Assembly (NCBI GenBank): GCA_015657435.1
Contig: JADLKH010000005.1
Coordinates: 16,516 to 31,706, forward strand
From: Synergistales bacterium
GTDB taxonomy: Bacteria > Synergistota > Synergistia > Synergistales > 79-D21
Length of the DNA stretch: 15,191 bases
Direction: 5' to 3'
In this document: in pieces, positions 1 through 14,883 of the stretch
How the letters are laid out: each line of letters begins with the position of its first letter
Position numbering within the stretch: position 1 is the stretch's first letter
Program-made: the position numbers and the translations under genes
The notes under the pieces: model-generated
Told to the model about the DNA's origin: nothing
Seen by the model: the letters and a program-made list of their open reading frames with translations, nothing else
Database searches by the model: none

Positions 1-1733
<1,733 letters not shown>

Positions 1734-1734
<1 letters not shown>

Positions 1735-2033
1735 TGGCAGTCGGCGAGGAAGAGGTCAGACATATCGCGCTTCTTGCAAGGCTCCATGTCACGGATCAGG
1801 AAACAGAACCCCTTCAAAGGCATCTCAACGATATCCTGGAACATTTCGAGAGACTTAAAGGCTTGGATCTCGTGAATGTCGACCCTTTCGCCAGGGAGGA
1901 TCTGGACGCGACTCCCTGGCGCGAGGATGTTGCCTGCTCCTGGGAGGGCAGGGAAGAAGCCCTGTCCGAGGCCCCTGTGAGGGATGGCGATTTTTTCCGG
2001 GTTCCCCGAATACTGGAGGGAAACGATGAATAG
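1734..2033 (+). CDS. gatC: Asp-tRNA(Asn)/Glu-tRNA(Gln) amidotransferase subunit C
   Basis: GatC is the small subunit of the GatCAB amidotransferase, wrapping around GatA and GatB and stabilising the complex. The 99-residue product has the normal family length. It shows the N-terminal helix motif VRHIALLARL, the following helix with a heptad-like pattern (LNDILEHFERL), the central VDPF segment, the WRED element, and the C-terminal EAPVRDGDFFRVPRIL that packs on GatA. An AAGGAGG Shine-Dalgarno site sits just before the ATG, inside the end of ligA. The gene overlaps ligA by one base at its start and gatA by eight bases at its end, so it belongs to one transcript with both. Confidence 0.95.
2015..2020 (+). 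promoter_or_regulatory. Ribosome-binding site that sets the gatA start
   Basis: GGAGGG lies 5 bases before the ATG at 2026. An earlier in-frame ATG at 1984 has no such site and would add 14 residues (beginning MAIFSGFPEY) unlike any GatA N-terminus, so 2026 is chosen. Confidence 0.75.
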
Positions 2034-3492
2034 GCTGCAAATGTCGGCCGCCGACCTTGCCCGGGCGGTGAAAAACCGGGAAGTTTCCGCGGCGGAAAAT
2101 GTCCAGGCTTCAATTGCAAGGATCGAAGAAGTTGAAGGGCGGGTTCACGCCCTGCTGACGCCGCTTTTCGACCGGGCCCTCGAAAAGGCGGCTCAAATAG
2201 ACCAAAAAGTCGGTAAGGGGGAAGACCCAGGGCCGCTTGCGGGTGTCCCGGTCATCGTCAAGGACAACCTTTGCATGAGGGGATTGAAAACGACATGCGG
2301 GAGCCGGATGCTCGAAAATTGGCGCCCGCCTTACGATGCCAGTACGGTTCGCTTCATGGAAGAAGCGGGTGCGGTGATCCTGGGGAAGGCGAACATGGAC
2401 GAATTCGCCATGGGAAGTTCTACGGAAAATTCCGCTTTCTTTCCGACCCTCAATCCCTGGGACCTCGACCGCGTTCCCGGAGGGAGCTCGGGCGGAAGCG
2501 CGGCTTCCGTGGCCTGTGGCTATGCCCCACTCGCATTGGGGAGCGATACCGGAGGATCGATCCGGCAACCCGCCGCCTTTTGCGGTGTGTACGGCCTGAA
2601 ACCGACCTATGGCCTTATCAGCCGTTATGGGCTCGTGGCGTTTGCGTCTTCCCTCGACCAAGTCGGACCTTTCTCCAGATCAGTCGAGGACCTGGCCCTG
2701 GTCCTCAATGTCCTGGCGAAGCCCGATCCGGCCGATGCGACGTCAAGCCGCAGGGAAAGGCCGGATTTCATGACGTTTCTTGGGAAAGAAAACCTGAAGG
2801 GTTTGAGGGTGGGGGTTGTATCGGAATTCGAAGCGTACCCGGTGCAGCCCGAGATCAAGGAAGCCATGGAGCGGGTACAGAACATACTGAGGGAGGCCGG
2901 CGCCAGGTTTAGCTGCGTGAACCTTCCCACGACCATAGAGGCGGGGCTTCCCTGCTACTACATCATTGCTCCGGCCGAGGCGAGCTCCAACCTTGCACGG
3001 TATGACGGAGTCCGATACGGATTGTCGGTTGAAGCGCGAAACCTCGGTGACCTTTACATGAAAACGAGAGGGCGGGGATTCGGAGCCGAGGTTAAGCGGC
3101 GGATCCTAACGGGGACCTATGTTCTAAGCTCCGGTTACTATGATGCCTATTACCTTGTTGCCCTGAAGGCCCGGACGAAGATATCACGGGAATTCAAAGA
3201 GGCCTTCCAGGATGTCGACATGCTTCTCATGCCCACGACGCCGACCCTGCCGTTCAGGCAGGGAGAAAACGTGGAAGACCCGATTCAGATGTATCTCGGA
3301 GACGTTTTCACCCTTCCGGTAAATCTGGCTTCCTTGCCTGGGTTATCCCTAAACGCGGGCTACAGCAAGACCGGTTTGCCGGTCGGCATCCAGCTTGTGG
3401 GACCGCAGTGGGGAGAAGGAACGCTCCTGGCTGCAGCAGAAGCGGTTGAGCGCGTACTGGGAAAACCGGCATGTGCCTTTGGAGGTGTATAG
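2026..3492 (+). CDS. gatA: Asp-tRNA(Asn)/Glu-tRNA(Gln) amidotransferase subunit A
   Basis: GatA is the glutaminase of GatCAB: it releases ammonia from glutamine, which is channelled to GatB to amidate mischarged Glu-tRNAGln or Asp-tRNAAsn. The 488-residue product has the family length and belongs to the amidase-signature family. Counting from the ATG at 2026, the Ser-cisSer-Lys triad falls at Lys79 (VPVIVKDN), Ser154 (PGGSSGGSAAS) and Ser178 (DTGGSIRQPAAFCG), the same numbers as in characterised GatA proteins, which supports the chosen start. The C-terminal half keeps the expected core strands and the final GLPVGIQLVGP motif. Its 5' end overlaps gatC by 8 bases, and its stop is two bases before the gatB start. 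Nothing unusual is seen; the protein looks active. Confidence 0.97.
   Translation: MNRLQMSAADLARAVKNREVSAAENVQASIARIEEVEGRVHALLTPLFDRALEKAAQIDQKVGKGEDPGPLAGVPVIVKDNLCMRGLKTTCGSRMLENWRPPYDASTVRFMEEAGAVILGKANMDEFAMGSSTENSAFFPTLNPWDLDRVPGGSSGGSAASVACGYAPLALGSDTGGSIRQPAAFCGVYGLKPTYGLISRYGLVAFASSLDQVGPFSRSVEDLALVLNVLAKPDPADATSSRRERPDFMTFLGKENLKGLRVGVVSEFEAYPVQPEIKEAMERVQNILREAGARFSCVNLPTTIEAGLPCYYIIAPAEASSNLARYDGVRYGLSVEARNLGDLYMKTRGRGFGAEVKRRILTGTYVLSSGYYDAYYLVALKARTKISREFKEAFQDVDMLLMPTTPTLPFRQGENVEDPIQMYLGDVFTLPVNLASLPGLSLNAGYSKTGLPVGIQLVGPQWGEGTLLAAAEAVERVLGKPACAFGGV
3481..3486 (+). promoter_or_regulatory. Ribosome-binding site that sets a GTG start for gatB
   Basis: GGAGGT, located within the last codons of gatA, is 8 bases before the in-frame GTG at 3495. 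The upstream ATG at 3471 lies before this site and would give eight extra residues (MCLWRCIG) with no family counterpart. Confidence 0.75.
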
Positions 3493-3494
3493 GC

Positions 3495-4961
3495 GTGAGA
3501 CAACCCGGATCTCCGGTGATCGGCCTGGAAATCCATGTCCAGGTGGCCACCGAAAGCAAACTCTTTTGCGCATGCTCGACGGACTATATCGGGGCGGTCC
3601 CAAACACTCATGTCTGCCCCGTCTGTCTCGGACAACCGGGATCGCTTCCTGTGATCAACGGCCGGGTTGTCGAATATGCCGTGAGGACCGCCCTGGCCCT
3701 TGGAGCACGGGTGGGCAAGTCGACCCGTTTCCACAGGAAAAACTATTTTTACCCCGACTTGCCGAAAGCCTACCAGATCAGCCAGTACGACCGGCCTCTT
3801 GCTGAGGGCGGGGCCCTTCCCATAGGCGAAGGTGAGAACCGCAAAGAGATTCCGATAACCCGCCTCCATCTCGAGGAGGACGCCGGGAAGTTGGTGCACT
3901 CCGCAGCGGATGGCAGACTGGGTCATTCGGAATACTCTCTGGTGGATTATAACCGGGGTGGGGTTCCGCTGATGGAAATCGTATCGGAACCCGAGATCTC
4001 GACCCCAGCGGAAGCGAGGGAATACGTGGCGACCCTGCGTCAACTGGTGCGATACCTCGGCGTTTCCGACGGGGATATGGAAAAGGGATCGCTCAGGGTG
4101 GATGCGAACGTTTCGTTGACCGGTGCCGACGGGAAACTTGGCACAAAGGTCGAGATCAAGAACATGAATTCATTGCGGGCCTTGGAGAGAGCCCTTGATT
4201 ACGAAATTGCCCGGCAGGCGGATCTGATCCGGAAGGGAGAAAGCGTCCGACAGGAGACGAGACACTGGGATGATGGCAACGGCCTGACCTGCGGGACCCG
4301 CGGAAAAGAGGAAGCCCATGATTACCGCTATTTTCCTGAGCCCGACCTGCCCGCGCTTGTCCTTCCCGACGGTTTTGTGGAGAAGCAGAGGGACATTATG
4401 CCTGAAATGCCGTGGATTCTCAAGGAAAGGTTTGTGACGGACTGGGGCCTTTCCCTGCAGGATGCGGCGGTCCTGACGGAACTTCCTGGCCTTTCCCGCT
4501 ACGTGGAGGATTGCGTCAGGGAAGGAGCCGACCCGCAACGTGCGGCCAACTGGATTCGAACCGAGGTTCTGCGAGTCCTCAACGAAAAGCGGATAGGGAT
4601 AGAAGATTTTGGCGTTCCGGCTGAGAACCTATCTCCCTTGTTGGTGAAGATTGATCGTGGAGAACTGTCGACGACCTTGGCAAAAACGGTGTTCGACCGG
4701 ATGGTTGCCGAAGGATTGACTGCTCTGGAAGCACTCGAAAAGATCGGGGCGCCTTCCGGCAGGCTGACTGGAGAAAGGTTGCGGAACGTCATCGAGCGGG
4801 TTCTCGAGAAGGAAAGCTCCGCAGTGGAGGAAATCAAATCGGGGAAAGATCCGAAGGGGAAGAAACGGGGATTCCTTTGCGGCCAAATCATGCGAGAAGC
4901 GAGAGGGCAAGCCGATCCGGAAGAAGTCGCAAAAACCCTTTCTCGATTTCTGGGTTGTTGA
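3495..4961 (+). CDS. gatB: Asp-tRNA(Asn)/Glu-tRNA(Gln) amidotransferase subunit B (GTG start)
   Basis: GatB binds the mischarged tRNA, phosphorylates its Glu or Asp side chain with ATP and transfers the ammonia delivered from GatA. With the GTG start the product is 488 residues (MRQPGSPVIGLEIHVQ...), matching the family. Features seen: a cysteine set at 25, 27, 41 and 44 (CAC...CPVC) as in zinc-binding GatB proteins; FYPDLPKAYQISQYD; the RLHLEEDAGKLVH active-site segment near residues 123-135; the PET112/GatB signature DYNRGGVPLMEIVSEPE at about 151-167; and YFPEPDLPAL. The C-terminal part is the helical YqeY-like tail that recognises the tRNA elbow (end: GQADPEEVAKTLSRFLGC). It closes the ligA-gatCAB unit. 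No terminator follows, so read-through into the EF-G-like gene is possible. Confidence 0.96.
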   Translation: MRQPGSPVIGLEIHVQVATESKLFCACSTDYIGAVPNTHVCPVCLGQPGSLPVINGRVVEYAVRTALALGARVGKSTRFHRKNYFYPDLPKAYQISQYDRPLAEGGALPIGEGENRKEIPITRLHLEEDAGKLVHSAADGRLGHSEYSLVDYNRGGVPLMEIVSEPEISTPAEAREYVATLRQLVRYLGVSDGDMEKGSLRVDANVSLTGADGKLGTKVEIKNMNSLRALERALDYEIARQADLIRKGESVRQETRHWDDGNGLTCGTRGKEEAHDYRYFPEPDLPALVLPDGFVEKQRDIMPEMPWILKERFVTDWGLSLQDAAVLTELPGLSRYVEDCVREGADPQRAANWIRTEVLRVLNEKRIGIEDFGVPAENLSPLLVKIDRGELSTTLAKTVFDRMVAEGLTALEALEKIGAPSGRLTGERLRNVIERVLEKESSAVEEIKSGKDPKGKKRGFLCGQIMREARGQADPEEVAKTLSRFLGC

Positions 4962-4992
4962 AAGAAAGGGTGGCGGAAAAACGCGGCCCTTT

Positions 4993-5001
4993 TGTTAGAA
5001 T
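4993..5001 (+). promoter_or_regulatory. Extended -10 promoter candidate for the EF-G-like gene
   Basis: TGTTAGAAT reads as an extended -10 element (TG, one base, TAGAAT; 5 of 6 to TATAAT). No good -35 hexamer lies 16-18 bases upstream, as is common for extended -10 promoters. The predicted transcript start near 5008 gives a leader of about 55 bases that carries the two hairpins listed next. The prediction is by eye only. Confidence 0.4.
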
Positions 5002-5020
5002 AGCAAGAGTGCGATTCACA

Positions 5021-5037
5021 ACGCGGCAAGGCCGCGT
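5021..5037 (+). promoter_or_regulatory. Perfect 7-bp hairpin or palindrome in the EF-G-like gene leader
   Basis: ACGCGGC-AAG-GCCGCGT is a perfect inverted repeat with a 3-base loop. A second copy of the left arm, ACGCGGC, occurs at 4981-4987, just upstream of the -10 candidate, so the right arm could pair with either copy. There is no T-tract after it, so it is not a standard terminator. It may be an RNA hairpin in the leader or a protein-binding palindrome. Confidence 0.4.
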
Positions 5038-5042
5038 GAAGA

Positions 5043-5057
5043 AACGAGGAGGTCGTT
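5043..5057 (+). promoter_or_regulatory. Ribosome-binding site displayed in the loop of a small hairpin
   Basis: AACGA-GGAGG-TCGTT is a perfect 5-bp stem with the Shine-Dalgarno core GGAGG (5048-5052) as its whole loop, 10 bases before the ATG at 5063. The loop sequence stays accessible, while the stem would clamp its flanks. The stem is short and AT-containing, so stability is modest. Confidence 0.4.
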
Positions 5058-5062
5058 AGGAG

Positions 5063-7147
5063 ATGGGGATGCGCAATCCGGTTGATGTCAGAACCTTTGC
5101 AATCGTGGCCCACGGTGGCGCCGGAAAGACGTCGCTGACGGAGGCCATGCTTTTCGATACAGGGGCCATCGGGCGCCTGGGAAAAGTAGAGGACGGAACG
5201 ACAACCACGGACTTCACGACCGAAGAACAGAAGCGGCAAATTTCAATTAATCTGGCCGTTGCGACGCTCCGCCACAAGGGAAAAACTCTTTTTGCCCTGG
5301 ATGCACCCGGATTTGCCGACTTTATCGGTGATGTCAGATCCTCCATGAGGGTGTCGGATTCCGCTGTTGTGGTCGTCAGCGGAGTGCACGGGGTCGAGGT
5401 CCAAACGGAAAAGGATTGGGAATTTGCCGAAGATTTCCAAATTCCGGTTCTCTTCTTCGTCAGCAAAATGGACCGTGAAAACGCCGATTTCGAGCGTACT
5501 GTGGGTGAACTTCGCAAGTACATGAGCGAAAAGGTCGTTCCCCTCTACCTCCCCATCGGTAAAGAGGCGTCTTTCAAGGGCGTTGTCGATGTTCTCGGAG
5601 GCAAGGCCTATCTCTACAAGGGAGACGGAAGCAAGGAATTCACCGAAGGCGACGTCCCGGCCGAAATGACGGAAGAGGCGCAGTCGGCTCGCGAAGCTCT
5701 GGTCGAGCGCATCGTCGAAGCGGATGACGAGTTGATGATGCGCTATTTGGATGGAGAGCAGATTTCCGGCGAGGAACTTTCCAAAGCCTTGAGGCTGGCT
5801 GTTGCGAAAAGGACCCTGTTCCCGGCGGTCCCCGGTTCAAGCACGGCAAATGTCGGCATCCTTCAGCTGCTGGATGTATTGGCGGACGTCATGCCTTCTC
5901 CGCTTGACATGGCTGCGAGGGAAGCTGGGAAAAACGGTGAAACGGTCAAAATCGAACCCAACCCGGCCGGGGCTTTTTCTGCGCTCTGCTTCAAGGTCAT
6001 GGTCGATCCGTACGTGGGCAAGTTGTCCTTCTTGCGGGTCTTCTCCGGGAGCCTCACAAGCGACCAGACTCTCTTCAACGTCAACAAGGGCGAAGAGGAA
6101 AGAATCAGCGCCTTCAAGTTCATGAAGGGGAAGGACGGCGAAGACCAGAAGGAAGTCGTCTGCGGAGATATCGTCGTTATTCCGAAACTTCACACGACCA
6201 CGGTCGGAGACACGCTTGGCGTTAAGGGGACAAACTTCCAATTCCCCCCCATTCAGTTCCCCCTGCCTATTTACAGCGTGGCCGTCACGCCCAAGAGCCG
6301 CGCTGACGAAGACAAGCTCAGCAACGCGATCCATCGGATGAGGGAAGAAGACGCAACGCTGCACTTCGAAAAGAACCCCGAGACGGGAGACAATGTCCTT
6401 TCCGGTATGGGCGACGTTCATCTCGACATCGTTCTATCGAAGATCAAGGACCGCTACGGGGTTGAGCTCGAAACGGGGACTCCGAAGGTTCCTTATAGGG
6501 AGACGATCAAGAAACCCTCCAAGGCACAGGGGAAATACAAGAAACAGACAGGTGGAAGAGGGCAGTACGGGGATGCGGTCATCGAGTTCTCCCCGCGCGA
6601 TCGTGGTGCCGGTTTTGAGTTCCAGGACAAGGTCGTGGGCGGAGCGGTTCCGAAATCATTTATCCCCGCTGTGGAAAAAGGGTTGCGGGAAGCCCTCGTG
6701 AAAGGCGTCCTTGCCGGGTTCCCGACCGTTGATTTCACGGCAGCCCTTGTGTTCGGTTCCTACCACGATGTCGACTCTTCCGAAATGGCCTTCAAGATCG
6801 CGGCTTCGATGGCTTTCAAGAAAGGGATCGTCGAGGCCTCCCCGATTCTTCTCGAACCGATCATGAACGCTGAAGTCGTCGTTCCCGAGGAATACCTCGG
6901 GGATGTCATGGGGGATTTCAACAGCCGCAGGGGCAGGATTATGGGGATCGACAGCCGGGGACGGCTTCAGGTCGTCAAGGCCCAGGTTCCCCTTGCCGAA
7001 ATGTTCCGTTATGCGATCATCCTCCGATCGATGACCTCCGGCAGGGGATCCTTCACGATGAGTTATTCCCACTATGAAGAAGTGCCGGCAGAAATCGCGA
7101 AAAAAGTCATCGCCGCTCACAAGGTGGAAGAAGAAGAAGAAAACTAG
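5063..7147 (+). CDS. fusA: Elongation factor G-like GTPase (EF-G-2/FusA2 type paralogue)
   Basis: The 694-residue protein has the full five-domain EF-G layout: GTPase domain with insert, domain II, III, IV (GGRGQYGDAVIEF; YHDVDSSEMAFKIAASMAF) and V (DVMGDFNSRRGRIMG). Its GTPase motifs differ from canonical EF-G: P-loop AHGGAGKTS (residues 16-24) instead of AHIDAGKTT; switch I RQISI (58-62) instead of RGITI; switch II DAPGF (80-84) instead of DTPGH, so the histidine that activates water is Phe84; and SKMD (134-137) for NKMD. These are marks of the EF-G-like family typified by Thermus EF-G-2 and mycobacterial FusA2, which binds GTP and the ribosome but has an uncertain role. It is not beside rpsL/rpsG/tuf, so a canonical fusA probably lies elsewhere. 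ATG 5063 is chosen for its Shine-Dalgarno spacing; a second in-frame ATG is at 5069. Confidence 0.93.
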   Translation: MGMRNPVDVRTFAIVAHGGAGKTSLTEAMLFDTGAIGRLGKVEDGTTTTDFTTEEQKRQISINLAVATLRHKGKTLFALDAPGFADFIGDVRSSMRVSDSAVVVVSGVHGVEVQTEKDWEFAEDFQIPVLFFVSKMDRENADFERTVGELRKYMSEKVVPLYLPIGKEASFKGVVDVLGGKAYLYKGDGSKEFTEGDVPAEMTEEAQSAREALVERIVEADDELMMRYLDGEQISGEELSKALRLAVAKRTLFPAVPGSSTANVGILQLLDVLADVMPSPLDMAAREAGKNGETVKIEPNPAGAFSALCFKVMVDPYVGKLSFLRVFSGSLTSDQTLFNVNKGEEERISAFKFMKGKDGEDQKEVVCGDIVVIPKLHTTTVGDTLGVKGTNFQFPPIQFPLPIYSVAVTPKSRADEDKLSNAIHRMREEDATLHFEKNPETGDNVLSGMGDVHLDIVLSKIKDRYGVELETGTPKVPYRETIKKPSKAQGKYKKQTGGRGQYGDAVIEFSPRDRGAGFEFQDKVVGGAVPKSFIPAVEKGLREALVKGVLAGFPTVDFTAALVFGSYHDVDSSEMAFKIAASMAFKKGIVEASPILLEPIMNAEVVVPEEYLGDVMGDFNSRRGRIMGIDSRGRLQVVKAQVPLAEMFRYAIILRSMTSGRGSFTMSYSHYEEVPAEIAKKVIAAHKVEEEEEN

Positions 7148-7165
7148 AAGGGCGAATGAATGGGC

Positions 7166-7212
7166 AAAAGGAAAGAGGCAGGCCGCTTCTGCGGCCTGCC
7201 TCTTTCCTTTTT
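7166..7212. terminator. Strong bidirectional intrinsic terminator
   Basis: A perfect 21-bp stem (7166-7186 pairing with 7191-7211) closes a TTCT loop. The stem is GC-rich near the loop and ends in A4/T4 at the base, continuing into a T5 run on the plus strand and a T4 run on the minus strand. It lies 18 bases past the EF-G-like stop and 31 bases past the stop of the minus-strand operon, so it can end both convergent transcripts. Bases 7213-7243 between it and the minus-strand stop show nothing else. Confidence 0.92.
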
Positions 7213-7243
7213 GAGTCTGTTGGCGCTGTCTTCGCCGGCCTCT

Positions 7244-10200
7244 TTAAGGACGCAGCGCAGCTTCAACGGCCGGAAGATTCGATTTCATTTTGCGGGATAG
7301 GTTCGAGAGAATCCTGACTAGGCTGAGTGCCTTCCCGTAGGGTACAGCCGCCGCCGCCTGATGATGGAGCTGTCCCGTCAGGCTCGAAAAGGAGCCTTCC
7401 CGTTCCGTCCAATAGGCCATGGGGAGAAGGGCTTCCGCCTGCTCGAGCTCGGTTGCCGCCGGTTTTGCGACAAAGCTGGCAAGGAATTCCAGTCCCAACA
7501 GGTCCGTTGAAGAGAGCCCGGTCTTGTCGGGTGAAACCCCGGCAAGCAAAAGGGCTTTGACCTTGCCCGAACGAATGGATACTTGGACGTCTTCAGGCGT
7601 GGTCCCATTCGCGTTGAGAGAGAGAAGCCCATGTGCGTTTGCCGCCTCGTGAAGGATAAGCACACGGCGTTGCTTCAGCATTTCCAGGAGTGGAAGGGTT
7701 TCCGCCGTGAGGTCGGAATGGGCGGCAAAGATTCCCCCGAAAAGCGTCGAGAGGTTCTTGGCCGAGAGCAAGAGCGAGGCGGCGCGGGTGACGGACTCGG
7801 GATCCTCGCCGGTAAGGGACTGAACCTTGGAGGGGGTGTAGTCCGAGAGGATCTCCGGCAAGACAGATCCTTTTGTCCGAAGAACGGCAGCCATGATGCC
7901 CCTAACGAGATGGATCTCGGTCCCGGGACGGGGATGAAGGAAAACGCCGTCTCCGCGGGAAAGCTTTTCGGGCATGTTCCCGATGCTGACGACAGAGGCA
8001 TGGCGTTGACGCATCCCCTTGCGGATGAAGGAGGTTAGAACCGGCTGGCGGTTGTCGGTGTCGGTATCCAGAAGAAGGTAAGCGTCGGAGGAGTTGAGGT
8101 CGCCATAGTCTTCGGGTTTCCAGTCCGTTCCCCATTTTTCCCGGACGGTCGTCCAGGCTCCTGCGGAAGCATCGAGTCCGAGGAAACAAGTTGAAGCGTT
8201 GCACAGACAACCTTCTGAGAAACGGCGAAGCGCCGTGGCCTCTTCATTGCTGAGGCACCCGCTGCCAAGCACCAGGAACGACTCCGGGCCGTAAGCCGCA
8301 AGCAAGGATTCCAGTCTGGAGGAAACATGGTCGACGGCTTTTTCCCAGTCGCAATCGAAACGTTTGCCGTCCACCTGGAGGGAGGGAGACCCGAGGCGTC
8401 CCTCTGTGGTTGTCGACGGGAGCGCTCGGCCGGCCCTGCAGCTGTTGCCCTGAGTGGGTGAGGAAGGAAGGTCGAGATCCGTCGTCACTCGGACGAGCCT
8501 GGAAGAGGCCTTGTCGAGATTCAGGACGAGATCGCATCCGACGGGGCACTCGGAGCAGGCCGTCGGAACGAGGACCGGCTTCTCGCTGTGGGGCCACCGT
8601 GATGTCCTCTTTTCGGTCAGCGCACCGACGGGGCACATTTGCACGCAAAGACCACAGGACGTGCATTCCGATTCGTCGATCGGCTTCCAGAATTCCGTGT
8701 CGATCAAACCCTCGAATCCCCTCTTTGTGAAGTCGATGGCGTGGAAGGCTGCGATCTCGTCGCAGGTACGGACGCAACGACCGCAAAGGATGCATTTGTC
8801 CATGTTCCGGTCGTAGAAGGCATTCGCTTCGACTGACCGCGGCAGGTGTTCTCCAGCGACCCGTTCGGGTTGGACCCCGTAATTTTGCCCGTAACGGCGG
8901 AGTCTGCACTCATGCAGGTCCGAACACCCGCACTCCATGCACCGCTTGGCATCCCGCAAGAGCTGCTCTTCATTGAGGCCGGGGCTGTATTCCCGGAATT
9001 TCATCTCCACTCGAAGCTTCGGATCGACATGAGGAACCTTTTCCTGAGGCTGCTTCTCCTTGTCGGCAAAATCTTCGGGGCCGAGATCGGTCCGGACCAC
9101 GTCGTACTCGAACGGTTTCTTCGGCTTCCCCGTCGTGATGTAGGCATGGATCGACTCGGCAGCGTAATGGCCATTGCCGATGGCACGAACGGCGATGTCC
9201 GGTCCGGTCTGCTGGTCTCCGCTGACGAAAACGCCCGGCAGTGGAGTGGCATAATCATCGTCGACGATCATCTTCTTCCCGTCGTGCAGCGTCCCCGGGA
9301 GGCCGTCAAAGCGAATCTGCTGGCCAATCGCAGCGATAATCGTGTCGACTTCGAGGCGTACGATTTCCCCGGTCGGCAAAGGTTTCCTTCGACCGGAAGC
9401 ATCGGGCTCTCCAAGCATCATTTTCTCGCATTCGAGGGCTTCGACCTTCCCGTTTCCGAGCACGGCTTTGGGAGCCATGAGGAAGAGGAACTCGACGCCT
9501 TCTTCCATGGCTTCCTGGATCTCGATATCCTGTGCCGGCATTTCCTCGCGGCTTCTCCGGTAAACGATGGTGACGGCTTCGGCTCCGAGCCGGAGCGAGC
9601 AGCGGCATGCATCCATTGCGGTGTTGCCGCCGCCGATGACGGCAACCTTTTTGCCGATTTCGGTTGGGAGGTCATTGTTGACCCTGTACAGGAAATCAAT
9701 CCCGCCGATGACTCCGGGCAGGTCCTCTCCGGCGACCCTCATCGGGGAGGATTTCCAGCAGCCCATGGCCAGCAGGACGGCATCGTTTTCGTCCCTGAGC
9801 TGTTCGATCGTGAAATCCCTTCCCAGGGCCATGCCGTGACGGACCTGCACGCCGTGGTCGACGATCCACTGGATCTCTCGGCGGAGAACTTCGCGCGGCA
9901 GTCGGTAGTCGGGGATCCCGTAGCGCATCATGCCACCGAGATCCGCTTCCTTTTCGTAAAGAGTGACGGTGTAGCCTTTCTGCCTGAGGAAATACGCGGC
10001 CGATACGCCGGAAGGACCGCCGCCTACAATGGAAACCTTGCGCCGGTTTTCCTCGATGACCGGGACAGGCGAAAGGGCATCGTTCAAAAGGCACCAGTCT
10101 CCGACAAAACGCTTGATCTCGCGGATGGAGATCGGTTGCTCGTCCACGAAGTTCCGGCGGCATTTCTCCTCGCAGGGAGCGGGGCAGACGCGGCCGATCG

Positions 10201-10633
10201 AGGCGGGCAGGGTGATGTTTTGGTGAAGCGCCGCAAGGGAGGCTTCGTACTTGCCCTGTGCGGCCAAGTTGACATATCCCTGCACGTCGCCGTGCGCCGG
10301 GCAGGTCAGGGTGCAGGGGGGACGGCAATCTCCCACATGGTCGGAGAACAGCAGTTCAAGTGCTAGTTTTCGGGCTTTCCGGACCCGGTCGCTGTCGGTC
10401 TGGATGACCATCCCCGGGGAAATGGTCGAAGCACAGGCTCTGACGAGGCTTTTTGCACCCTTGACGTCAACGAGGCAAACCGAGCAGCCCCCATGCACGG
10501 AAAGGTGCGGGTCATAACAGAGAGTGGGAATTTCGACCGCGCATTCCGCACAAAGATCGAGGATTTTCTGCCCGCCGTATCCGTAGACTTCCTTTCCGTC
10601 AAGGATGACCTTCACGTTGCGTTCCATGGTCAT
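7244..10633 (-). CDS. NuoG/GltD/molybdopterin-domain fusion: multi-cluster iron-sulfur flavoprotein of a NADH-linked complex
   Basis: A 1129-residue soluble electron-transfer protein with no signal peptide or membrane segment. Modules in order: NuoG/HydA-like [2Fe-2S] domain (Cys39, 50, 53, 67); a cysteine set that merges the NuoG His-Cys motif with the GltD N-terminus (His99, Cys103, 107, 111, then Cys150, 154, 158); a GltD/NfnB-like flavoprotein with FAD motif GGGPSG (204-209), second Rossmann motif GGGNTAMDA (334-342) with YRRSREEMPA (358-367), expected to bind NADP(H), and closing FAD motif VFVSGD near 468-473; a linker Cys group (565, 568, 570, 576); two [4Fe-4S] ferredoxin motifs (Cys614-624 and 657-667); a molybdopterin-oxidoreductase Fe4S4 motif (Cys693, 696, 700, 732); and a MopB-like domain to the end lacking the catalytic Cys/Sec. 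It is last in the operon, 9 bases after the NuoF-like gene; GGAGGAG precedes the ATG. An in-frame ATG at 10627 is an alternative start. Proposed role: linking NADH, NADP(H) and ferredoxin (inference). Confidence 0.88.
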   Translation of the reverse strand: MTMERNVKVILDGKEVYGYGGQKILDLCAECAVEIPTLCYDPHLSVHGGCSVCLVDVKGAKSLVRACASTISPGMVIQTDSDRVRKARKLALELLFSDHVGDCRPPCTLTCPAHGDVQGYVNLAAQGKYEASLAALHQNITLPASIGRVCPAPCEEKCRRNFVDEQPISIREIKRFVGDWCLLNDALSPVPVIEENRRKVSIVGGGPSGVSAAYFLRQKGYTVTLYEKEADLGGMMRYGIPDYRLPREVLRREIQWIVDHGVQVRHGMALGRDFTIEQLRDENDAVLLAMGCWKSSPMRVAGEDLPGVIGGIDFLYRVNNDLPTEIGKKVAVIGGGNTAMDACRCSLRLGAEAVTIVYRRSREEMPAQDIEIQEAMEEGVEFLFLMAPKAVLGNGKVEALECEKMMLGEPDASGRRKPLPTGEIVRLEVDTIIAAIGQQIRFDGLPGTLHDGKKMIVDDDYATPLPGVFVSGDQQTGPDIAVRAIGNGHYAAESIHAYITTGKPKKPFEYDVVRTDLGPEDFADKEKQPQEKVPHVDPKLRVEMKFREYSPGLNEEQLLRDAKRCMECGCSDLHECRLRRYGQNYGVQPERVAGEHLPRSVEANAFYDRNMDKCILCGRCVRTCDEIAAFHAIDFTKRGFEGLIDTEFWKPIDESECTSCGLCVQMCPVGALTEKRTSRWPHSEKPVLVPTACSECPVGCDLVLNLDKASSRLVRVTTDLDLPSSPTQGNSCRAGRALPSTTTEGRLGSPSLQVDGKRFDCDWEKAVDHVSSRLESLLAAYGPESFLVLGSGCLSNEEATALRRFSEGCLCNASTCFLGLDASAGAWTTVREKWGTDWKPEDYGDLNSSDAYLLLDTDTDNRQPVLTSFIRKGMRQRHASVVSIGNMPEKLSRGDGVFLHPRPGTEIHLVRGIMAAVLRTKGSVLPEILSDYTPSKVQSLTGEDPESVTRAASLLLSAKNLSTLFGGIFAAHSDLTAETLPLLEMLKQRRVLILHEAANAHGLLSLNANGTTPEDVQVSIRSGKVKALLLAGVSPDKTGLSSTDLLGLEFLASFVAKPAATELEQAEALLPMAYWTEREGSFSSLTGQLHHQAAAAVPYGKALSLVRILSNLSRKMKSNLPAVEAALRP

Positions 10634-10642
10634 CGCTCCTCC

Positions 10643-12394
10643 TTACTCCACGCTGATGGCGCTGACGGGACAGGCCTTCATGCACTGTCCGCAGCGGACG
10701 CAGATGTCGTCGTTGATCAGATGGGGTTTCTTGATTTCCCCGGTTATGGCAGAGACGGGGCAGGCCCGGGCGCACTTCGTGCACCCGATGCATTTCGCCG
10801 GATCGATCGTGTAGTGAATGAGGGCTGAACAGACTTTCGCCGGGCATTTCTTGTCCCGGATATGTGCGATGTATTCGTGCTCGAAATATTTTAGGGTCGT
10901 CAGGACGGGATTGGGAGCCGTCTGTCCGAGGCCGCAAAGGGAACCGTCCTTGATCTGGGGAGCGAGTTCCTTCAGCGTTTCAAGATCTTCCATCTTTCCC
11001 TTGCCTTCGCAGATACGGGTCAGGATTTCAAGCATGCGCTTCGTTCCGATCCTGCAGAAGGGGCATTTCCCGCAGGATTCCTTCTGCGTGAAGGACAGGA
11101 AGAAACGAGCGACGTCGACCATGCAGGTTCCTTCGTCCATGACGACCATCCCGCCGGATCCCATGATGGCTCCGGTAGCGGTGATCGACTCGTAGTCGAC
11201 GGGAGTGTCGATCTTCTCGGCGGGGATGCACCCTCCCGAGGGCCCTCCCATCTGGACGGCCTTGAATGCCTTGTCGTTCTGGATGCCTCCGCCGATTTCA
11301 AAAATGACGTCCCTGATGGGCATTCCCATGGGAACCTCGACAAGGCCGCCCTTCTTGATTTTGCCTGCAAGGGCGAACACTTTCGTCCCCTTGCTTTTTT
11401 CGGTCCCGTACTGAGCGAAGGCCGCATGTCCATTCGCCAGGATCCATGGGATGTTGGCCAGAGTTTCAACGTTGTTGATGTTCGTGGGTTTGCCGAAAAC
11501 TCCTTTGTGCGCCGGGAAGGGCGGCCTGGGGCGCGGCATCCCGCGTTTCCCCTCGATGGAGGCGATAAGGGCGGTTTCCTCGCCGCATACGAAGGCGCCG
11601 GCGCCTTCCTTGATGTAGATGTCGAATGAGAAATCGCTGCCGAGAACCTTCTGTCCGAGGTATCCCTTTGCGCGAGCCTGTTCCAGCGCCTTGTTCAGGT
11701 GCTTGATGGCCAGGGGGTATTCCGCGCGGCAATAGATGATCCCCTGTGCGGCTCCGATGGCGTAGCCACAGATCGCCATTCCTTCGATCACGCTGTGGGG
11801 ATCGCCCTCTAGGACGGACCGGTCCATGAAGGCTCCGGGGTCGCCTTCATCGGCGTTGCAGACGACATATTTCGAGTCGCCCTTGGCGTCGTGCGCGAAC
11901 CGCCACTTCATCCCGGTCGGGAAGCCGGCTCCTCCGCGCCCTCGCAATCCGCTTTTCAGGACCTCGTCGATCACCTCATCCGGGGACATCCCAGACAGGG
12001 CTTTCCGTAGCGAGTCGTACCCGCCTCGCTGCTCGTATTCCTCTATCTTCTGCGGGTCGATCTGCCCGCAGTTCCGGAGAACGATGCGCACCTGTTTTCC
12101 CATCATGGAATTCTCCGGGGCTTCCTGGGCATGGCTGAGGATCGGGGTGAACTGGTCTTTTCCTTCCAGGATGGCTTCAACGGATTCCGGCGTCACCTCG
12201 CCGTAAACCGTGCTTTTTCCGTCCTTCTCGATTTCCACGAGAGGTTCGTGAAAGCAAAGGCCGATGCAGCCCACCTTCTTCAATTCGATATCTGCGCGTT
12301 CCTTAACGAGAGACTCGATCTTCTCATACACCGGGCCGGCGCCGGCCGCGATTCCGCAACTGGACATGCCAACCTTGACGATCATCTTGGACAA
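10643..12394 (-). CDS. nuoF: NuoF/HydB-like NADH-binding FMN iron-sulfur subunit (TTG start)
   Basis: NADH-oxidising (or NAD+-reducing) FMN subunit, 583 residues from the TTG. Modules: N-terminal thioredoxin-like [2Fe-2S] domain (Cys13, 43, 47; only three of the four Cys of the C-x4-C...C-x3-C pattern); NuoF core with the NADH-binding glycine motif GLRGRGGAGFPTG (about 149-161) and the FMN-binding CNADEGDPGAF (179-189); GAFVCGEETALIASIEG; [4Fe-4S] ligands Cys441, 444, 447 and 487; and a C-terminal pair of [4Fe-4S] ferredoxin motifs (Cys535-545 and 565-575). Complex I NuoF lacks both end domains; this long form is the HydB/BfuB form of bifurcating enzymes, so the symbol describes homology, not complex I membership. 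It starts 15 bases after the NuoE-like stop. An ATG at 12385 is too far from the ribosome site to be preferred. Confidence 0.92.
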   Translation of the reverse strand: MSKMIVKVGMSSCGIAAGAGPVYEKIESLVKERADIELKKVGCIGLCFHEPLVEIEKDGKSTVYGEVTPESVEAILEGKDQFTPILSHAQEAPENSMMGKQVRIVLRNCGQIDPQKIEEYEQRGGYDSLRKALSGMSPDEVIDEVLKSGLRGRGGAGFPTGMKWRFAHDAKGDSKYVVCNADEGDPGAFMDRSVLEGDPHSVIEGMAICGYAIGAAQGIIYCRAEYPLAIKHLNKALEQARAKGYLGQKVLGSDFSFDIYIKEGAGAFVCGEETALIASIEGKRGMPRPRPPFPAHKGVFGKPTNINNVETLANIPWILANGHAAFAQYGTEKSKGTKVFALAGKIKKGGLVEVPMGMPIRDVIFEIGGGIQNDKAFKAVQMGGPSGGCIPAEKIDTPVDYESITATGAIMGSGGMVVMDEGTCMVDVARFFLSFTQKESCGKCPFCRIGTKRMLEILTRICEGKGKMEDLETLKELAPQIKDGSLCGLGQTAPNPVLTTLKYFEHEYIAHIRDKKCPAKVCSALIHYTIDPAKCIGCTKCARACPVSAITGEIKKPHLINDDICVRCGQCMKACPVSAISVE

Positions 12395-12401
12395 CTGGGA
12401 C

Positions 12402-12407
12402 ACCTCC
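12402..12407 (-). promoter_or_regulatory. Ribosome-binding site that sets a TTG start for the NuoF-like gene
   Basis: On the minus strand GGAGGT is 7 bases before the in-frame TTG at 12394-12392. An earlier TTG (12409) sits in front of this site, and the ATG at 12385 is 16 bases away, so 12394 has the best spacing. Confidence 0.65.
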
Positions 12408-12409
12408 AA

Positions 12410-12898
12410 TCAGTCGGCTTTGCGATAGGTTTCGAGAATCGCGACTGCTTTTTCCGGGGTAAGACGGCCGTGCACCTCGTCGTCGATCATCATGACCGGT
12501 GCGAGGCTGCAGCAGCCCAAACAGGCGACGAACTGGAGAGTGAACAGGCCGTCTTCGGTCGTCTGCCCCTCTTCAATCTTCAGATGGCGCTGGAGCATCT
12601 CGCCCACCCTGAGCGAACCCTGGACATGACAGGCCGTTCCCCGACAAAGCCGGACGACGTGTTTCCCCTGCGGTTGGAGCCGGAACATCGCGTAGAACGT
12701 CGCGACACCGAACAGTTCCGCCGCGGGAATATCCATTTCCCTCGACAGGAAGTCCAGCGACTCGCCGGAAAGGTACCCGATCTTTTCCTGGACCGCAGCC
12801 AGAAGCGGGATCGTGATTCCCTTGCCACCCTTGTAGCGCTCGATGATCGGTCGCAAGGCCTCTTCGAGCTCGGGTTTACCCATGACCAACGTCGGCAT
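12410..12898 (-). CDS. nuoE: NuoE/HydC-like [2Fe-2S] subunit
   Basis: Thioredoxin-fold [2Fe-2S] protein, partner of the NuoF-like subunit, to which it passes electrons or from which it accepts them. With the ATG at 12898 it has 162 residues, the usual length for NuoE. It shows the N-terminal helical bundle (LLAAVQEKIGYLSGESLDFL) and the cluster motif C-x4-C (LCRGTAC) followed by C-x3-C (ACLGCCSLAPV), with an extra Cys inside the second pair where most homologues have Ala. The ATG is preceded by AAGGAGG at 12912-12906, 7 bases away; a longer frame from 12970 would put this site inside the gene and add 24 unconserved residues. It is the first gene of the minus-strand operon and a subunit of a NADH-linked hydrogenase/dehydrogenase-type complex rather than of complex I. 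Confidence 0.93.
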   Translation of the reverse strand: MPTLVMGKPELEEALRPIIERYKGGKGITIPLLAAVQEKIGYLSGESLDFLSREMDIPAAELFGVATFYAMFRLQPQGKHVVRLCRGTACHVQGSLRVGEMLQRHLKIEEGQTTEDGLFTLQFVACLGCCSLAPVMMIDDEVHGRLTPEKAVAILETYRKAD

Positions 12899-12905
12899 TG
12901 GTTTC

Positions 12906-12912
12906 CCTCCTT
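12906..12912 (-). promoter_or_regulatory. Ribosome-binding site that sets the NuoE-like start
   Basis: AAGGAGG on the minus strand, 7 bases before the ATG at 12898. It decides against the upstream in-frame ATG at 12970, which has no comparable site and coincides with the predicted transcript start. Confidence 0.7.
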
Positions 12913-12978
12913 GCCACTCCACACAAATTCGGGGGGAAGCGTGATGGCTCCCTCCCGTTTCATCCGCCAATCGGCGAC

Positions 12979-12984
12979 ATTATA
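12979..12984 (-). promoter_or_regulatory. -10 element of the promoter for the minus-strand redox operon
   Basis: The minus strand carries a perfect TATAAT. The -35 region 16-18 bases upstream (about 13001-13008) is T-rich but a poor match to TTGACA, which suggests an activated or weak promoter. Transcription would start near 12972, giving a leader of about 75 bases. A small inverted repeat, CGCC-AATC-GGCG (12965-12976), overlaps the predicted start and could be an operator. Confidence 0.5.
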
Positions 12985-13084
12985 ACCTTTAAACGCGTTT
13001 TCGAAAAAACCGAACCACCTGTGAAATAAAGCGAGAAAGGGCCGATCTTTAGGAGGGTAAGAATCAGCGATGGTACGGATAAGA

Positions 13085-13112
13085 TTGACAATCATTTACA
13101 CTGTGATAATAT
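13085..13112 (+). promoter_or_regulatory. Promoter candidate for the glutaredoxin-like gene
   Basis: A consensus -35 TTGACA (13085-13090) is followed by two overlapping -10 candidates: GATAAT (13105-13110, spacing 14) and TAATAT (13107-13112, spacing 16). A further TG-G-TATATA extended -10-like element lies at 13121-13129. The area is AT-rich in contrast to its surroundings. The divergent region 12899-13166 contains this promoter and the minus-strand one and no convincing gene. Confidence 0.55.
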
Positions 13113-13166
13113 CCCCATAGTGGTATATAAATGCGGACCGACCTTTCAATCGGGAGGAGATCAACC

Positions 13167-13415
13167 ATGAGCGTCAAGGTCTATTCAACCCCTACCTGTC
13201 CGTGGTGCACGAAAGTCAAGGATTTCCTAAAACAGATGAACGTTGCCTACGAGGAAGTGGACGTTAGCGCGAACCGCGAGGCGGCCATGGAAATGGTGAA
13301 GAAGACGCGACAGATGGGAGTTCCGGTAACCCAGGTCAACGAACGGTTCATTGTCGGGTTCAATGCCTCCGAAATCGAAGGGGCTTTAAAGGACGCCGGC
13401 ATCATCAAGGGGTAA
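13167..13415 (+). CDS. Glutaredoxin-like / NrdH-type redoxin with CPWC active site
   Basis: An 82-residue single-domain thioredoxin-fold protein beginning MSVKVYSTPTCPWC. The redox pair is Cys11/Cys14 in CPWC, followed by the helix TKVKDFLKQ; the cis-proline is Pro53 in GVPVT; and the C-terminal IVGF is typical. This pattern fits the small NrdH/YruB-like glutaredoxin group common in anaerobes, which reduces protein disulfides with electrons from thioredoxin reductase or a similar donor; the substrate cannot be told from the sequence. The ATG at 13167 is 9 bases after GGAGG (13153-13157); a longer frame from 13131 would place the ribosome site inside the gene. It is transcribed divergently from the redox operon and followed at once by a terminator, so it is probably monocistronic. 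Confidence 0.9.
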   Translation: MSVKVYSTPTCPWCTKVKDFLKQMNVAYEEVDVSANREAAMEMVKKTRQMGVPVTQVNERFIVGFNASEIEGALKDAGIIKG

Positions 13416-13438
13416 GAGGGACATTGCCGATCGAAAAA

Positions 13439-13475
13439 AGAAGGGGCTGGCTTGACCAGCCCCTTCTCGATTTTT
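13439..13475 (+). terminator. Intrinsic terminator after the glutaredoxin-like gene
   Basis: A perfect 12-bp stem (13439-13450 with 13456-13467), GC-rich near the loop, closes a CTTGA loop and is followed, after CGA, by T5 (13471-13475). It starts 23 bases after the redoxin stop and ends 19 bases before the pgi start. Confidence 0.85.
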
Positions 13476-13494
13476 CATACCTGGAGGCGGGATC

Positions 13495-14883
13495 ATGAGC
13501 ACGAATCTTTTCACGATCGGGCTTGGAGGCGTCATCGGAGACGGGACCAGGCTTCCTTTGATCGCTGAAAGCGAGATCATGCTTCTGGAAAAGTCCCTGA
13601 GAAAAGCGGAGTCACACCTGAGGATACATTCCGAACGCGGCACGATGGGGTACGGCTGGATGAAGCTGCCCTATGCGGATATCGAACCGCTCCGTCTCGT
13701 TGCCCGCAAACTGGAGGATTACGATTCCATCGTACAGGTCGGAATCGGGGGGTCGGCTCTTGGGAACCTCATGTTGAACAACGCCTTCCTGCACCCTTTC
13801 CACAACGAACTGACCAGGAAGGAGCGCAAATCCCCACGCTTTTACATGGCGGATAACCCGGACCCGTTGAGTCTGTCCGGAATATGGGATTGTGTAGACC
13901 CGGAAAGGACCGCGTTCGTCGTCGTGAGCAAGTCCGGCTCAACCGCCGAAACAATCGCGATCTTCCTCTGGTTTTTCGAAGCGATGCGCCAGCGGCTTGG
14001 AGAGGAAAAAGCCCTCTCGCATTTTGTTTTCATCACGGATCCGAAGAAGGGAATTCTTCGGGATCTGGCTTCTAGGGGCGCAATGGCGACTTTGCCCGTG
14101 CCAGAGAATGTCGGGGGACGCTTCTCGGTTTTTTCAGAAGTCGGACTTTTATCCGCGAGTGCGATGGGGCTTCCGGTAAAAGATCTGCTGGAAGGAGCGA
14201 AGCTCCTGGACGAGCGGTTGATCCGGGCGGATGGAATATGGGACAACCCTGCGTGGATTCTCGCGGCGCTACATGTTCTTCACTTTCGCAAGGGAAGGCC
14301 GATGGCGGTCATGATGCCCTACGGAGACGGCCTTGAGCGCTTTGCGGAATGGCATGCGCAGCTTTGGGGTGAAAGCCTTGGCAAGGAGGGGAAAGGAAGT
14401 ACCCCTGTGCGGGCTCTTGGAGCGATCGACCAGCACTCTCAGGTTCAACTTTATGTGGCGGGGCCTGACGACAAACTTTTCACGCTGATCGACATCGCTG
14501 AAAAAGGACCGGACCTGAAAATCCCCTCTACAGCCCAAAAAGAGCTTGCAGCCTCACGATATTTGGAGGGACATTCCTTCTCGGAACTCCTTTCCGTGGA
14601 AGCCCGTTCCACCGCGGCCGCTCTCATGAAGGCGCAAAAGCCCGTCATCTGGCTGGAAATCCCAAACCTTGACGGGATACGACTGGGGGCGCTTGTTTTC
14701 CTGTACGAGGTCGTCACGGCTCTGACCGGAATCCTTCTGGAAGTCGATCCTTTTGATCAGCCTGGCGTCGAGCAGGGGAAGCGGTATACTTATGGGCTGA
14801 TGGGTAGGGAAGGGTATGGCGCTGATGCGAAGGAAGCCTCTGAGGCTTTCGGGAAAACCCTTTCCAAAACCCTGTCCGTATAG
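13495..14883 (+). CDS. pgi: Glucose-6-phosphate isomerase
   Basis: Interconverts glucose 6-phosphate and fructose 6-phosphate in the cytoplasm (glycolysis, gluconeogenesis, cell-wall sugar supply). The 462-residue product matches the shorter bacterial Pgi type rather than the roughly 550-residue enterobacterial form. It contains two SIS sugar-phosphate domains with [12 protein letters not shown] (142-153) binding phosphate; PGI signature [11 protein letters not shown] (207-217); catalytic Glu293 in QLWGESLGK; catalytic His314 in [11 protein letters not shown]; and the second signature [10 protein letters not shown] with catalytic Lys429. All key residues are present, so it should be active. 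GGAGG (13483-13487) is 7 bases before the ATG. No clear promoter fits between the preceding terminator and the start. panC follows after 11 bases, so the two are probably co-transcribed. Confidence 0.96.

What the first reader, a model, noticed from the sequence alone, without database searches (positions are those of the whole stretch)
7244..12898. Candidate electron-bifurcating NADH / NADP(H) / ferredoxin complex
Seen: a three-gene operon encoding NuoE, a long NuoF with a thioredoxin-like head and two extra ferredoxin clusters, and a fusion carrying a GltD-type FAD/NADP(H) module. Known: the NuoE plus long NuoF pair is the core of bifurcating [FeFe]-hydrogenases (HydABC) and the wider 'Bfu' class, where the third subunit decides the third substrate; GltD-like NfnB is a bifurcating transhydrogenase subunit. 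Inference: here the hydrogenase domain is replaced by a GltD-like module, so the complex could link NADH, NADPH and ferredoxin without H2. No quinone-reactive, membrane or hydrogenase subunit is encoded beside it.
Basis: partly seen in the sequence, partly recalled or inferred. Interest (0 to 1): 0.7.

Follow-up and report, generated by a model that had tools for sequence, protein, structure and literature searches.

The report
Stn-type bifurcating NADP(H)/NADH/ferredoxin transhydrogenase
Three neighbouring bacterial genes encode a known kind of enzyme complex that exchanges electrons between NADPH, NADH and ferredoxin, and in this group of bacteria it often sits in the same chromosomal spot that relatives use for a differently built enzyme known for the same job.

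Summary
In detail: window 7244-12898 (minus strand) encodes NuoE-like, long HydB/NuoF-like and GltD-fused proteins. For StnB and StnC the closest solved chains are Caldicellulosiruptor NfnABC (9bov) and Sporomusa StnABC (8oh5). The Fe-S ligands I mapped are kept, including StnC's special lysine (K174) and the five-ligand B2 site of bifurcating BfuB; one tuning cysteine of S. ovata is valine here. The genome's hydrogenase, formate and aldehyde clusters have their own BfuB/BfuC-like genes, so this is probably not their diaphorase. New comparative evidence: of 185 genomes of the phylum (Synergistota, inferred), 55 have Stn, 109 NfnA, none both after one partial hit was dropped, 21 neither. Stn and Nfn operons share a slot near pgi/fusA (29 of 34 Stn loci, 26 of 38 Nfn loci examined), with several exchanges on trees of the flanking genes. 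This supports functional equivalence. Side finding: some relatives have StnC with an apparently intact formate site, mostly with UGA. New member of a known kind; no activity was measured.

The parts
12410..12898 (-). stnA (BfuC/HydC/NuoE-like), 162 aa from ATG 12898; ligands of one [2Fe-2S] cluster C109, C114, C150, C154 (numbering of the 186-aa open frame that starts at 12970)
10643..12409 (-). stnB (BfuB/HydB/NuoF-like), up to 588 aa; likely start TTG 12394 (eight bases behind GGAGG) or ATG 12385. FMN/NAD(H) site, B1, B2 and two C-terminal 4Fe-4S clusters
10646..10813 (-). StnB C-terminal ferredoxin-like domain (C540-C580), putative ferredoxin-reducing site
   Evidence: role by homology to PMC10482914
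12164..12388 (-). StnB N-terminal thioredoxin-like domain with only three cysteines (C18, C48, C52)
7244..10633 (-). stnC, 1129 aa (1127 from ATG 10627): N-terminal 2Fe-2S domain, GltD-like FAD/NADP(H) module, NuoG-like dicluster, vestigial FdhF-like domain
9119..10327 (-). GltD-like module of StnC (aa 103-505) with K174, R244 and the stretches GGGNTAMDA and VYRRSREEMPA (reading them as the NADP(H) site is partly recalled)
8615..8809 (-). NuoG-like dicluster of StnC (C614-C624, C657-C667)
7247..8587 (-). vestigial FdhF-like domain of StnC (aa 683-1129): one 4Fe-4S motif kept (C693, C696, C700, C732); catalytic Cys/Sec motif and the Lys two after the last Cys absent
7166..7211 (.). 21-bp perfect inverted repeat with 4-base loop between the convergent fusA and stnC stops, probable two-way terminator
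   Evidence: read by eye; the pattern scan did not list it

Best explanation
The operon stnABC encodes a soluble Stn-family (Nfn-Bfu) electron-bifurcating transhydrogenase, ideally 2 NADPH + NAD+ + 2 Fd(ox) <-> 2 NADP+ + NADH + 2 Fd(red), reversible. By homology with solved complexes, NADPH gives a hydride to the FAD of StnC; electrons pass through Fe-S clusters of StnC to the FMN of StnB; FMN with the B2 and A1 [2Fe-2S] clusters splits them to NAD+ and, after StnA swings, to ferredoxin at the C-terminal clusters of StnB. The net direction in this cell is not known; formation of NADPH from NADH and reduced ferredoxin is my guess. The FdhF-like domain is most likely a catalytically dead scaffold.
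Against: No activity measured. C114, which tunes cluster C7 in S. ovata, is valine here (V117); valine stands in 12 of the 17 rows, cysteine in 5. StnA alone scores best against the NiFe-Bfu C subunit (180 bits; 9n5u_C 162, 9bov_C 155, 8oh5_A 144). Four StnC-linked BfuB rows fall outside the Stn branch. The genome is 85.6% complete, so a missing NfnAB is not fully excluded. The Fisher value ignores shared ancestry, and the loci for the slot were chosen by me.
Confidence: 0.93

Rival explanations
1. A diaphorase arm that serves a separate hydrogenase or formate dehydrogenase encoded elsewhere.
For: The BfuBC core is the same as in HydABC and Fdh-Bfu, and StnC keeps a NuoG/FdhF-like part.
Against: The genome's NiFe hydrogenase, formate dehydrogenase and aldehyde oxidoreductase clusters (read by eye) each have their own BfuB and a BfuC-like frame; StnC has its own NADP(H)/FAD module.
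Confidence: 0.03
2. A formate-linked enzyme: the C-terminal domain oxidises formate, as is likely in the StnC variants of family f10.
For: Same domain order; of nine f10 loci read, six keep an active-site motif with UGA, one with Cys, two have lost it.
Against: In the alignment the window protein lacks the active-site Cys motif, has A734 where P0075 and P0081 have the Lys of CVKGR, and ends about 240 residues earlier.
Confidence: 0.01
3. An NADPH-dependent sulfur oxidoreductase, the activity for which the homologous NsoABC of Thermococcus litoralis was named, without bifurcation in vivo.
For: NsoABC has the same architecture (PMC7483475, section 8).
Against: The B2 and other core residues of bifurcating BfuB are kept; exclusion and slot sharing with NfnAB.
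Confidence: 0.03

Closest known systems
StnABC of Sporomusa ovata (8oh5, 8oh9; PMC7483475, PMC10482914)
   Same: Three subunits and domain order, cluster count of StnC (one 2Fe-2S, six 4Fe-4S), K170/R239 equivalents, E184/D186 equivalents, inactive FdhF-like domain
   Different: V117 in place of C114; StnC 1129 against 1172 aa; host inferred to be a Synergistota bacterium, not an acetogenic Firmicute
NfnABC of Caldicellulosiruptor saccharolyticus (9bov, 9bp5) and of Thermococcus sibiricus (9n5u, 9n5v)
   Same: First and third sequence matches for StnB and StnC, and among the top four fold matches of StnC
   Different: The T. sibiricus A subunit is shorter (963 aa)
NfnAB
   Same: GltD-like NADP(H) module; same overall reaction expected
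   Different: No NfnA subunit here; bifurcation expected at FMN of StnB rather than FAD of NfnB; lysine instead of the glutamate reported near the FAD-proximal cluster
HydABC / NiFe-Bfu hydrogenases
   Same: BfuBC core
   Different: No H-cluster domain (PF02906 not among the 18 Pfam matches of StnC) and no NiFe subunits in the window

Membership tests
Bfu family (bifurcating BfuBC core) | Five-ligand B2 [2Fe-2S] site including His, reported absent in non-bifurcating homologues | tested here: met
   C429, C467, H516, C522, C527 align with C438, C476, H525, C531, C536 of the A. mobile NiFe-Bfu B subunit
Bfu family (bifurcating BfuBC core) | C-terminal 4Fe-4S dicluster and N-terminal thioredoxin-like domain in BfuB; thioredoxin-like BfuC | tested here: met
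   the N-terminal domain has three cysteines, like the StnB chains in the alignment, so the B5 cluster of NiFe-Bfu may be absent
Stn / Nfn-Bfu transhydrogenase | Large subunit = N-terminal 2Fe-2S + GltD-like + NuoG-like/FdhF-like | tested here: met
Stn / Nfn-Bfu transhydrogenase | Lysine (K170) at cluster C7 and Arg239 near FAD | tested here: met
   K174 and R244 by alignment with 8oh5_C; invariant in 64 of 64 rows
Stn / Nfn-Bfu transhydrogenase | B subunit groups with StnC-linked BfuBs | tested here: met
   branch (SH-aLRT 99) of 65 rows holds the window, 62 of 66 Stn-labelled rows (window included) and 3 labelled other; 4 Stn-labelled f10 rows fall outside; about 12 genes enter twice through overlapping loci
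Stn / Nfn-Bfu transhydrogenase | NADPH-dependent, NAD+-coupled ferredoxin reduction | not testable with these tools
   needs purified enzyme
NfnAB | NfnA (NF004862) partner | tested here: not met
   no NfnA over the cut-off in the own (85.6% complete) genome; the only hit (96.6 bits against 220) lies among pyrimidine genes and reads as PyrK
[FeFe]-HydABC hydrogenase | H-cluster domain in subunit A | tested here: not met
   no PF02906 among the 18 families matched by StnC
Formate dehydrogenase | Active-site Cys/Sec motif and the Lys two after the last Cys of the 4Fe-4S motif (roles recalled) | tested here: not met
   alignment: both absent in the window protein

The most novel reading that the evidence does not exclude
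StnABC and NfnAB, two bifurcating transhydrogenases with different mechanisms, behave like alternative alleles of one chromosomal slot (ligA-gatA-gatB-fusA | slot | pgi) in Synergistota: no genome examined has both, and they were swapped at the slot at least four times on the tree of the flanking pgi, perhaps by recombination in the conserved flanks. The phylum would thus hold a natural set of replacement experiments showing that the two enzymes substitute for each other in vivo.
Probability: 0.7. Interest if true: 0.5.

Novelty: new member of a known kind. Interest (0 to 1): 0.4.

Why it matters
The enzyme extends a characterised family and needs no new mechanism. The exchange pattern matters more: two structurally different solutions to the same energy-coupling problem share a locus and seem to replace one another, which is genetic support that Stn works as an Nfn substitute outside acetogens, and offers close relatives (genus g11) in which the two mechanisms can be compared. 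The relatives whose StnC keeps a formate site suggest how the dead FdhF domain arose and predict a four-substrate hub (formate, NADPH, NADH, ferredoxin).

Tried and rejected
Rejected: a new enzyme class (searches give direct structural homologues); a diaphorase for hydrogenase or formate dehydrogenase; an active formate site; a real operon duplication (one search shows an inverted contig-end repeat). The single UGA reported in StnC of three family-f9 genomes (L176-L178) proved to be the C-terminal stop. G148 was dropped from the Stn count because its match covers only residues 105-576 at 42% in a 1649-aa frame. Rfam found nothing in the window, ARAGORN no tRNA; one search found one promoter-like site against 1.6 expected and six terminator-like sites against 7.3. 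Rfam showed no match near the UGA codons, but the library need not hold bacterial SECIS elements. Paper searches for 9BOV/9BP5 and for 9N5U/NfnABC gave only PMC12954380 as relevant; the NfnABC structure paper (PMC11829005) is not held, so I know only its title through that paper's reference list. Searches for Stn/Nfn in Synergistes or Synergistota and for a shared locus or gene displacement listed no paper whose title or abstract start reports the shared slot; only listings were read there. Not done: a prediction of the three-chain complex; a species tree independent of the flanking genes; family searches on the other Bfu clusters.
Full report
What is there. The three minus-strand genes are as described. 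I call them stnA (12898-12410), stnB (12409-10643, longest frame) and stnC (10633-7244). They are at most about 25 bases apart, and a GGAGG lies 4-10 bases before a possible start of each. Pfam gives a thioredoxin-like [2Fe-2S] ferredoxin for StnA; the same fold, the 51-kDa FMN domain, NADH_4Fe-4S and two 4Fe-4S motifs for StnB; and Fer2_4, Fer4_20, Pyr_redox_2, a 4Fe-4S dicluster and Molybdopterin (PF00384) for StnC. Neighbours read as ligA-gatA-gatB-fusA on the left, fusA convergent with stnC, and pgi on the right, divergent from stnA (my reading). A 21-bp inverted repeat separates fusA and stnC (by eye).

Cofactor audit. StnC keeps 28 residues that I assign to one [2Fe-2S] and six [4Fe-4S] clusters: C39 C50 C53 C67; H99 C103 C107 C111; C150 C154 C158 with K174; C565 C568 C570 C576; C614 C617 C620 C624 and C657 C660 C663 C667; C693 C696 C700 C732. 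All are invariant in the 64-row alignment. The number of clusters equals that of S. ovata StnC (PMC10482914: abstract, the whole Results and the Discussion read). K174 aligns with K170, which that paper calls strictly conserved in StnC; R244 with R239; V117 stands where S. ovata has C114. In StnB, C429, C467, H516, C522 and C527 align with the five B2 ligands of A. mobile NiFe-Bfu (PMC9304861: abstract, passages and section 6 part 1 read; alignment), and E188/D190 with E184/D186 of S. ovata. StnA keeps C109, C114, C150, C154 (numbered on the 186-aa open frame).

The dead formate domain. In the window's StnC the residue two after C732 is alanine (A734); in P0075 and P0081, and in five of the seven f10 loci with an active-site motif (where the pattern was printed), this is the lysine of CVKGR. 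The DHC-x-x-L-C/U-H motif is missing in the window and the protein ends about 240 residues earlier. So formate activity is not expected. The S. ovata domain is reported as catalytically inactive too.

Mechanism. I take the scheme of PMC10482914: NADPH to FAD in StnC, through C7-C6-C5-C4-C3 to B1 and FMN in StnB, then NAD+ and, through B2 and A1, the C-terminal clusters and ferredoxin. Shown here: conservation of the sites. Inferred: electron path, reversibility, net direction. That the FAD is not the bifurcating flavin is the paper's finding, not mine.

Family placement. A quick IQ-TREE of 83 BfuB rows (open frames from the loci then in hand with at least 430 residues matched; every other StnC-linked genome contigs row left out; about 12 genes present twice through overlapping loci; Wor-linked row chosen as outgroup) puts the window in a branch (SH-aLRT 99) of 65 rows: 62 of the 66 labelled Stn and 3 labelled other. 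Four Stn-labelled rows of family f10 fall outside, and the label needs 5 changes. The genome's own NiFe- and Fdh-linked BfuBs lie together in another branch. Those with both include Firmicutes, Bacteroidota, Cloacimonadota and a Heimdallarchaeota MAG.

Host. I take its phylum to be Synergistota from the names of the nearest named homologues (Synergistaceae MAGs, Aminiphilus, Aminivibrio, Dethiosulfovibrio, Acetomicrobium). G000 has 2.68 Mb in 6 contigs, 85.6% complete. Read by eye from open frames, without family searches, it also encodes a NiFe-Bfu cluster (L011 5276-12012), an Fdh-Bfu cluster with an in-frame TGA in DHCAHL-TGA-HS and a FocA-like gene (L011 13156-19603), and a Wor-Bfu cluster (L012 3112-9459); their BfuBs are found (61, 62 and 51% identity), while some BfuC-like frames look broken. 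SelB is present. Two PF14691 hits besides StnC read as old-yellow-enzyme/GltD fusions. The only NfnA-like hit reads as PyrK. The only PF02906 hit is a 437-aa protein beside a PHP-like gene.

Exclusion with Nfn. Among 185 genomes of the phylum StnC matched at E <= 1e-100 in 56, some as fragments; one, G148, matches only residues 105-576 at 42% and was dropped, leaving 55. NfnA (NF004862 over its cut-off) was found in 109. G148 was the only genome in both lists; without it none has both and 21 have neither. A Fisher test gives 6e-30, which ignores shared ancestry and incomplete genomes. In the first 31 genomes: 16 Stn, 13 Nfn, 0 both, 2 neither. Near-exclusion was already reported for 48 acetogens, with exceptions such as Clostridium magnum (PMC7483475: abstract, section 8, the whole Discussion with tables, and passages read), and exclusion for Thermococcaceae (PMC9304861, passages).

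Shared slot. In 34 Stn loci from other genomes, 25 have pgi, 21 fusA, 29 either and 17 both within the fetched stretch; in 38 Nfn loci, 25 have pgi, 9 fusA, 26 either and 8 both. Stretches were 6-19.5 kb and often cut by contig ends; loci were chosen by me across families and genera, not at random; two Stn loci fetched twice count once; three Stn loci had no StnB hit over my threshold but stay in the count. The 12 Nfn loci without either flank include both taken from outside the order (G032, G034). Where pgi is found it is divergent from the operon, as in the window, in the Stn loci whose core was placed and in 23 of 25 Nfn loci; G005 and G014 are arranged otherwise (read by eye). On a tree of the flanking pgi (50 rows, 24 Nfn) the most parsimonious number of changes between Stn and Nfn is 7, of which starred branches force 4; on fusA (29 rows) 4 and 2. 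Smaller careful trees gave 6 and 4 for pgi (22 rows), 4 and 3 for fusA (18 rows). In genus g11, G119 has nfnAB beside pgi while G118, G120 and G122 have stnABC there; G119 shows no fusA within the fetched stretch. Flanking genes may themselves have moved, so these counts are not a species-tree result. I found no report of the shared slot in the searches (listings read only).

Side finding. In seven of nine family-f10 loci read (L167-L173) StnC has a formate-dehydrogenase active-site motif, six with UGA and one with Cys; where the stretch allows, the frame runs on to 1367-1368 codons; L174 and L175 have lost the motif. Hairpins could be drawn behind the UGA in each of the three of six that I folded, and all ten genomes tested encode SelB. 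This suggests a formate-coupled StnABC; it is a lead, not tested further. One paper search on this combination (listing only) showed no such fusion in titles or abstract starts.

Verdict. Interest comes from the exchange pattern and the formate-competent relatives.

Noticed in passing
G000 contig C5:1-30665 (window 1-14148 within it): The contig begins with a 15.15-kb inverted copy of the following 15 kb (no mismatches and 3 gaps over the 14.15 kb compared with the window), about 355 bases apart: most likely a fold-back read or assembly artefact that creates a false second operon copy.
   Followed up: partly
L167-L173 (family f10 genomes G178-G184): StnC homologues with a formate-dehydrogenase active-site motif, six with an in-frame UGA (probable selenocysteine) and one with Cys: possible formate/NADPH/NADH/ferredoxin hub.
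   Followed up: partly
L011 5276-12012 and 13156-19603; L012 3112-9459: Own genome appears to have three further Bfu complexes: NiFe-Bfu, Fdh-Bfu (FdhA with in-frame TGA, FocA-like gene behind) and Wor-Bfu (read by eye).
   Followed up: partly
L011 4996-5115: Molybdenum/tungsten (Moco) riboswitch match (63.7 bits, gathering 36) just upstream of the NiFe-Bfu cluster, not directly before the formate dehydrogenase.
   Followed up: no
G005, G012, G013, G014, G019, G021, G028: Open frames of about 1050 aa that match StnB (without its C-terminal ferredoxin part) and the GltD part of StnC: probable BfuB-GltD fusions, in both Stn and Nfn genomes.
   Followed up: no
G000 C2:640366 and C2:653222 (L014, L015): Two nearby old-yellow-enzyme/GltD-like fusion genes with very similar first halves; one frame is shorter (675 against 831 aa).
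   Followed up: no
window 13438-13468: Strong two-way terminator-like hairpin just before pgi in the roughly 600-base gap between stnA and pgi; I saw no gene there that explains it.
   Followed up: no
family f3 genomes G103-G116: StnC alignments stop near residue 770-820 in most of these genomes, so the FdhF-like domain is diverged or shortened there.
   Followed up: no
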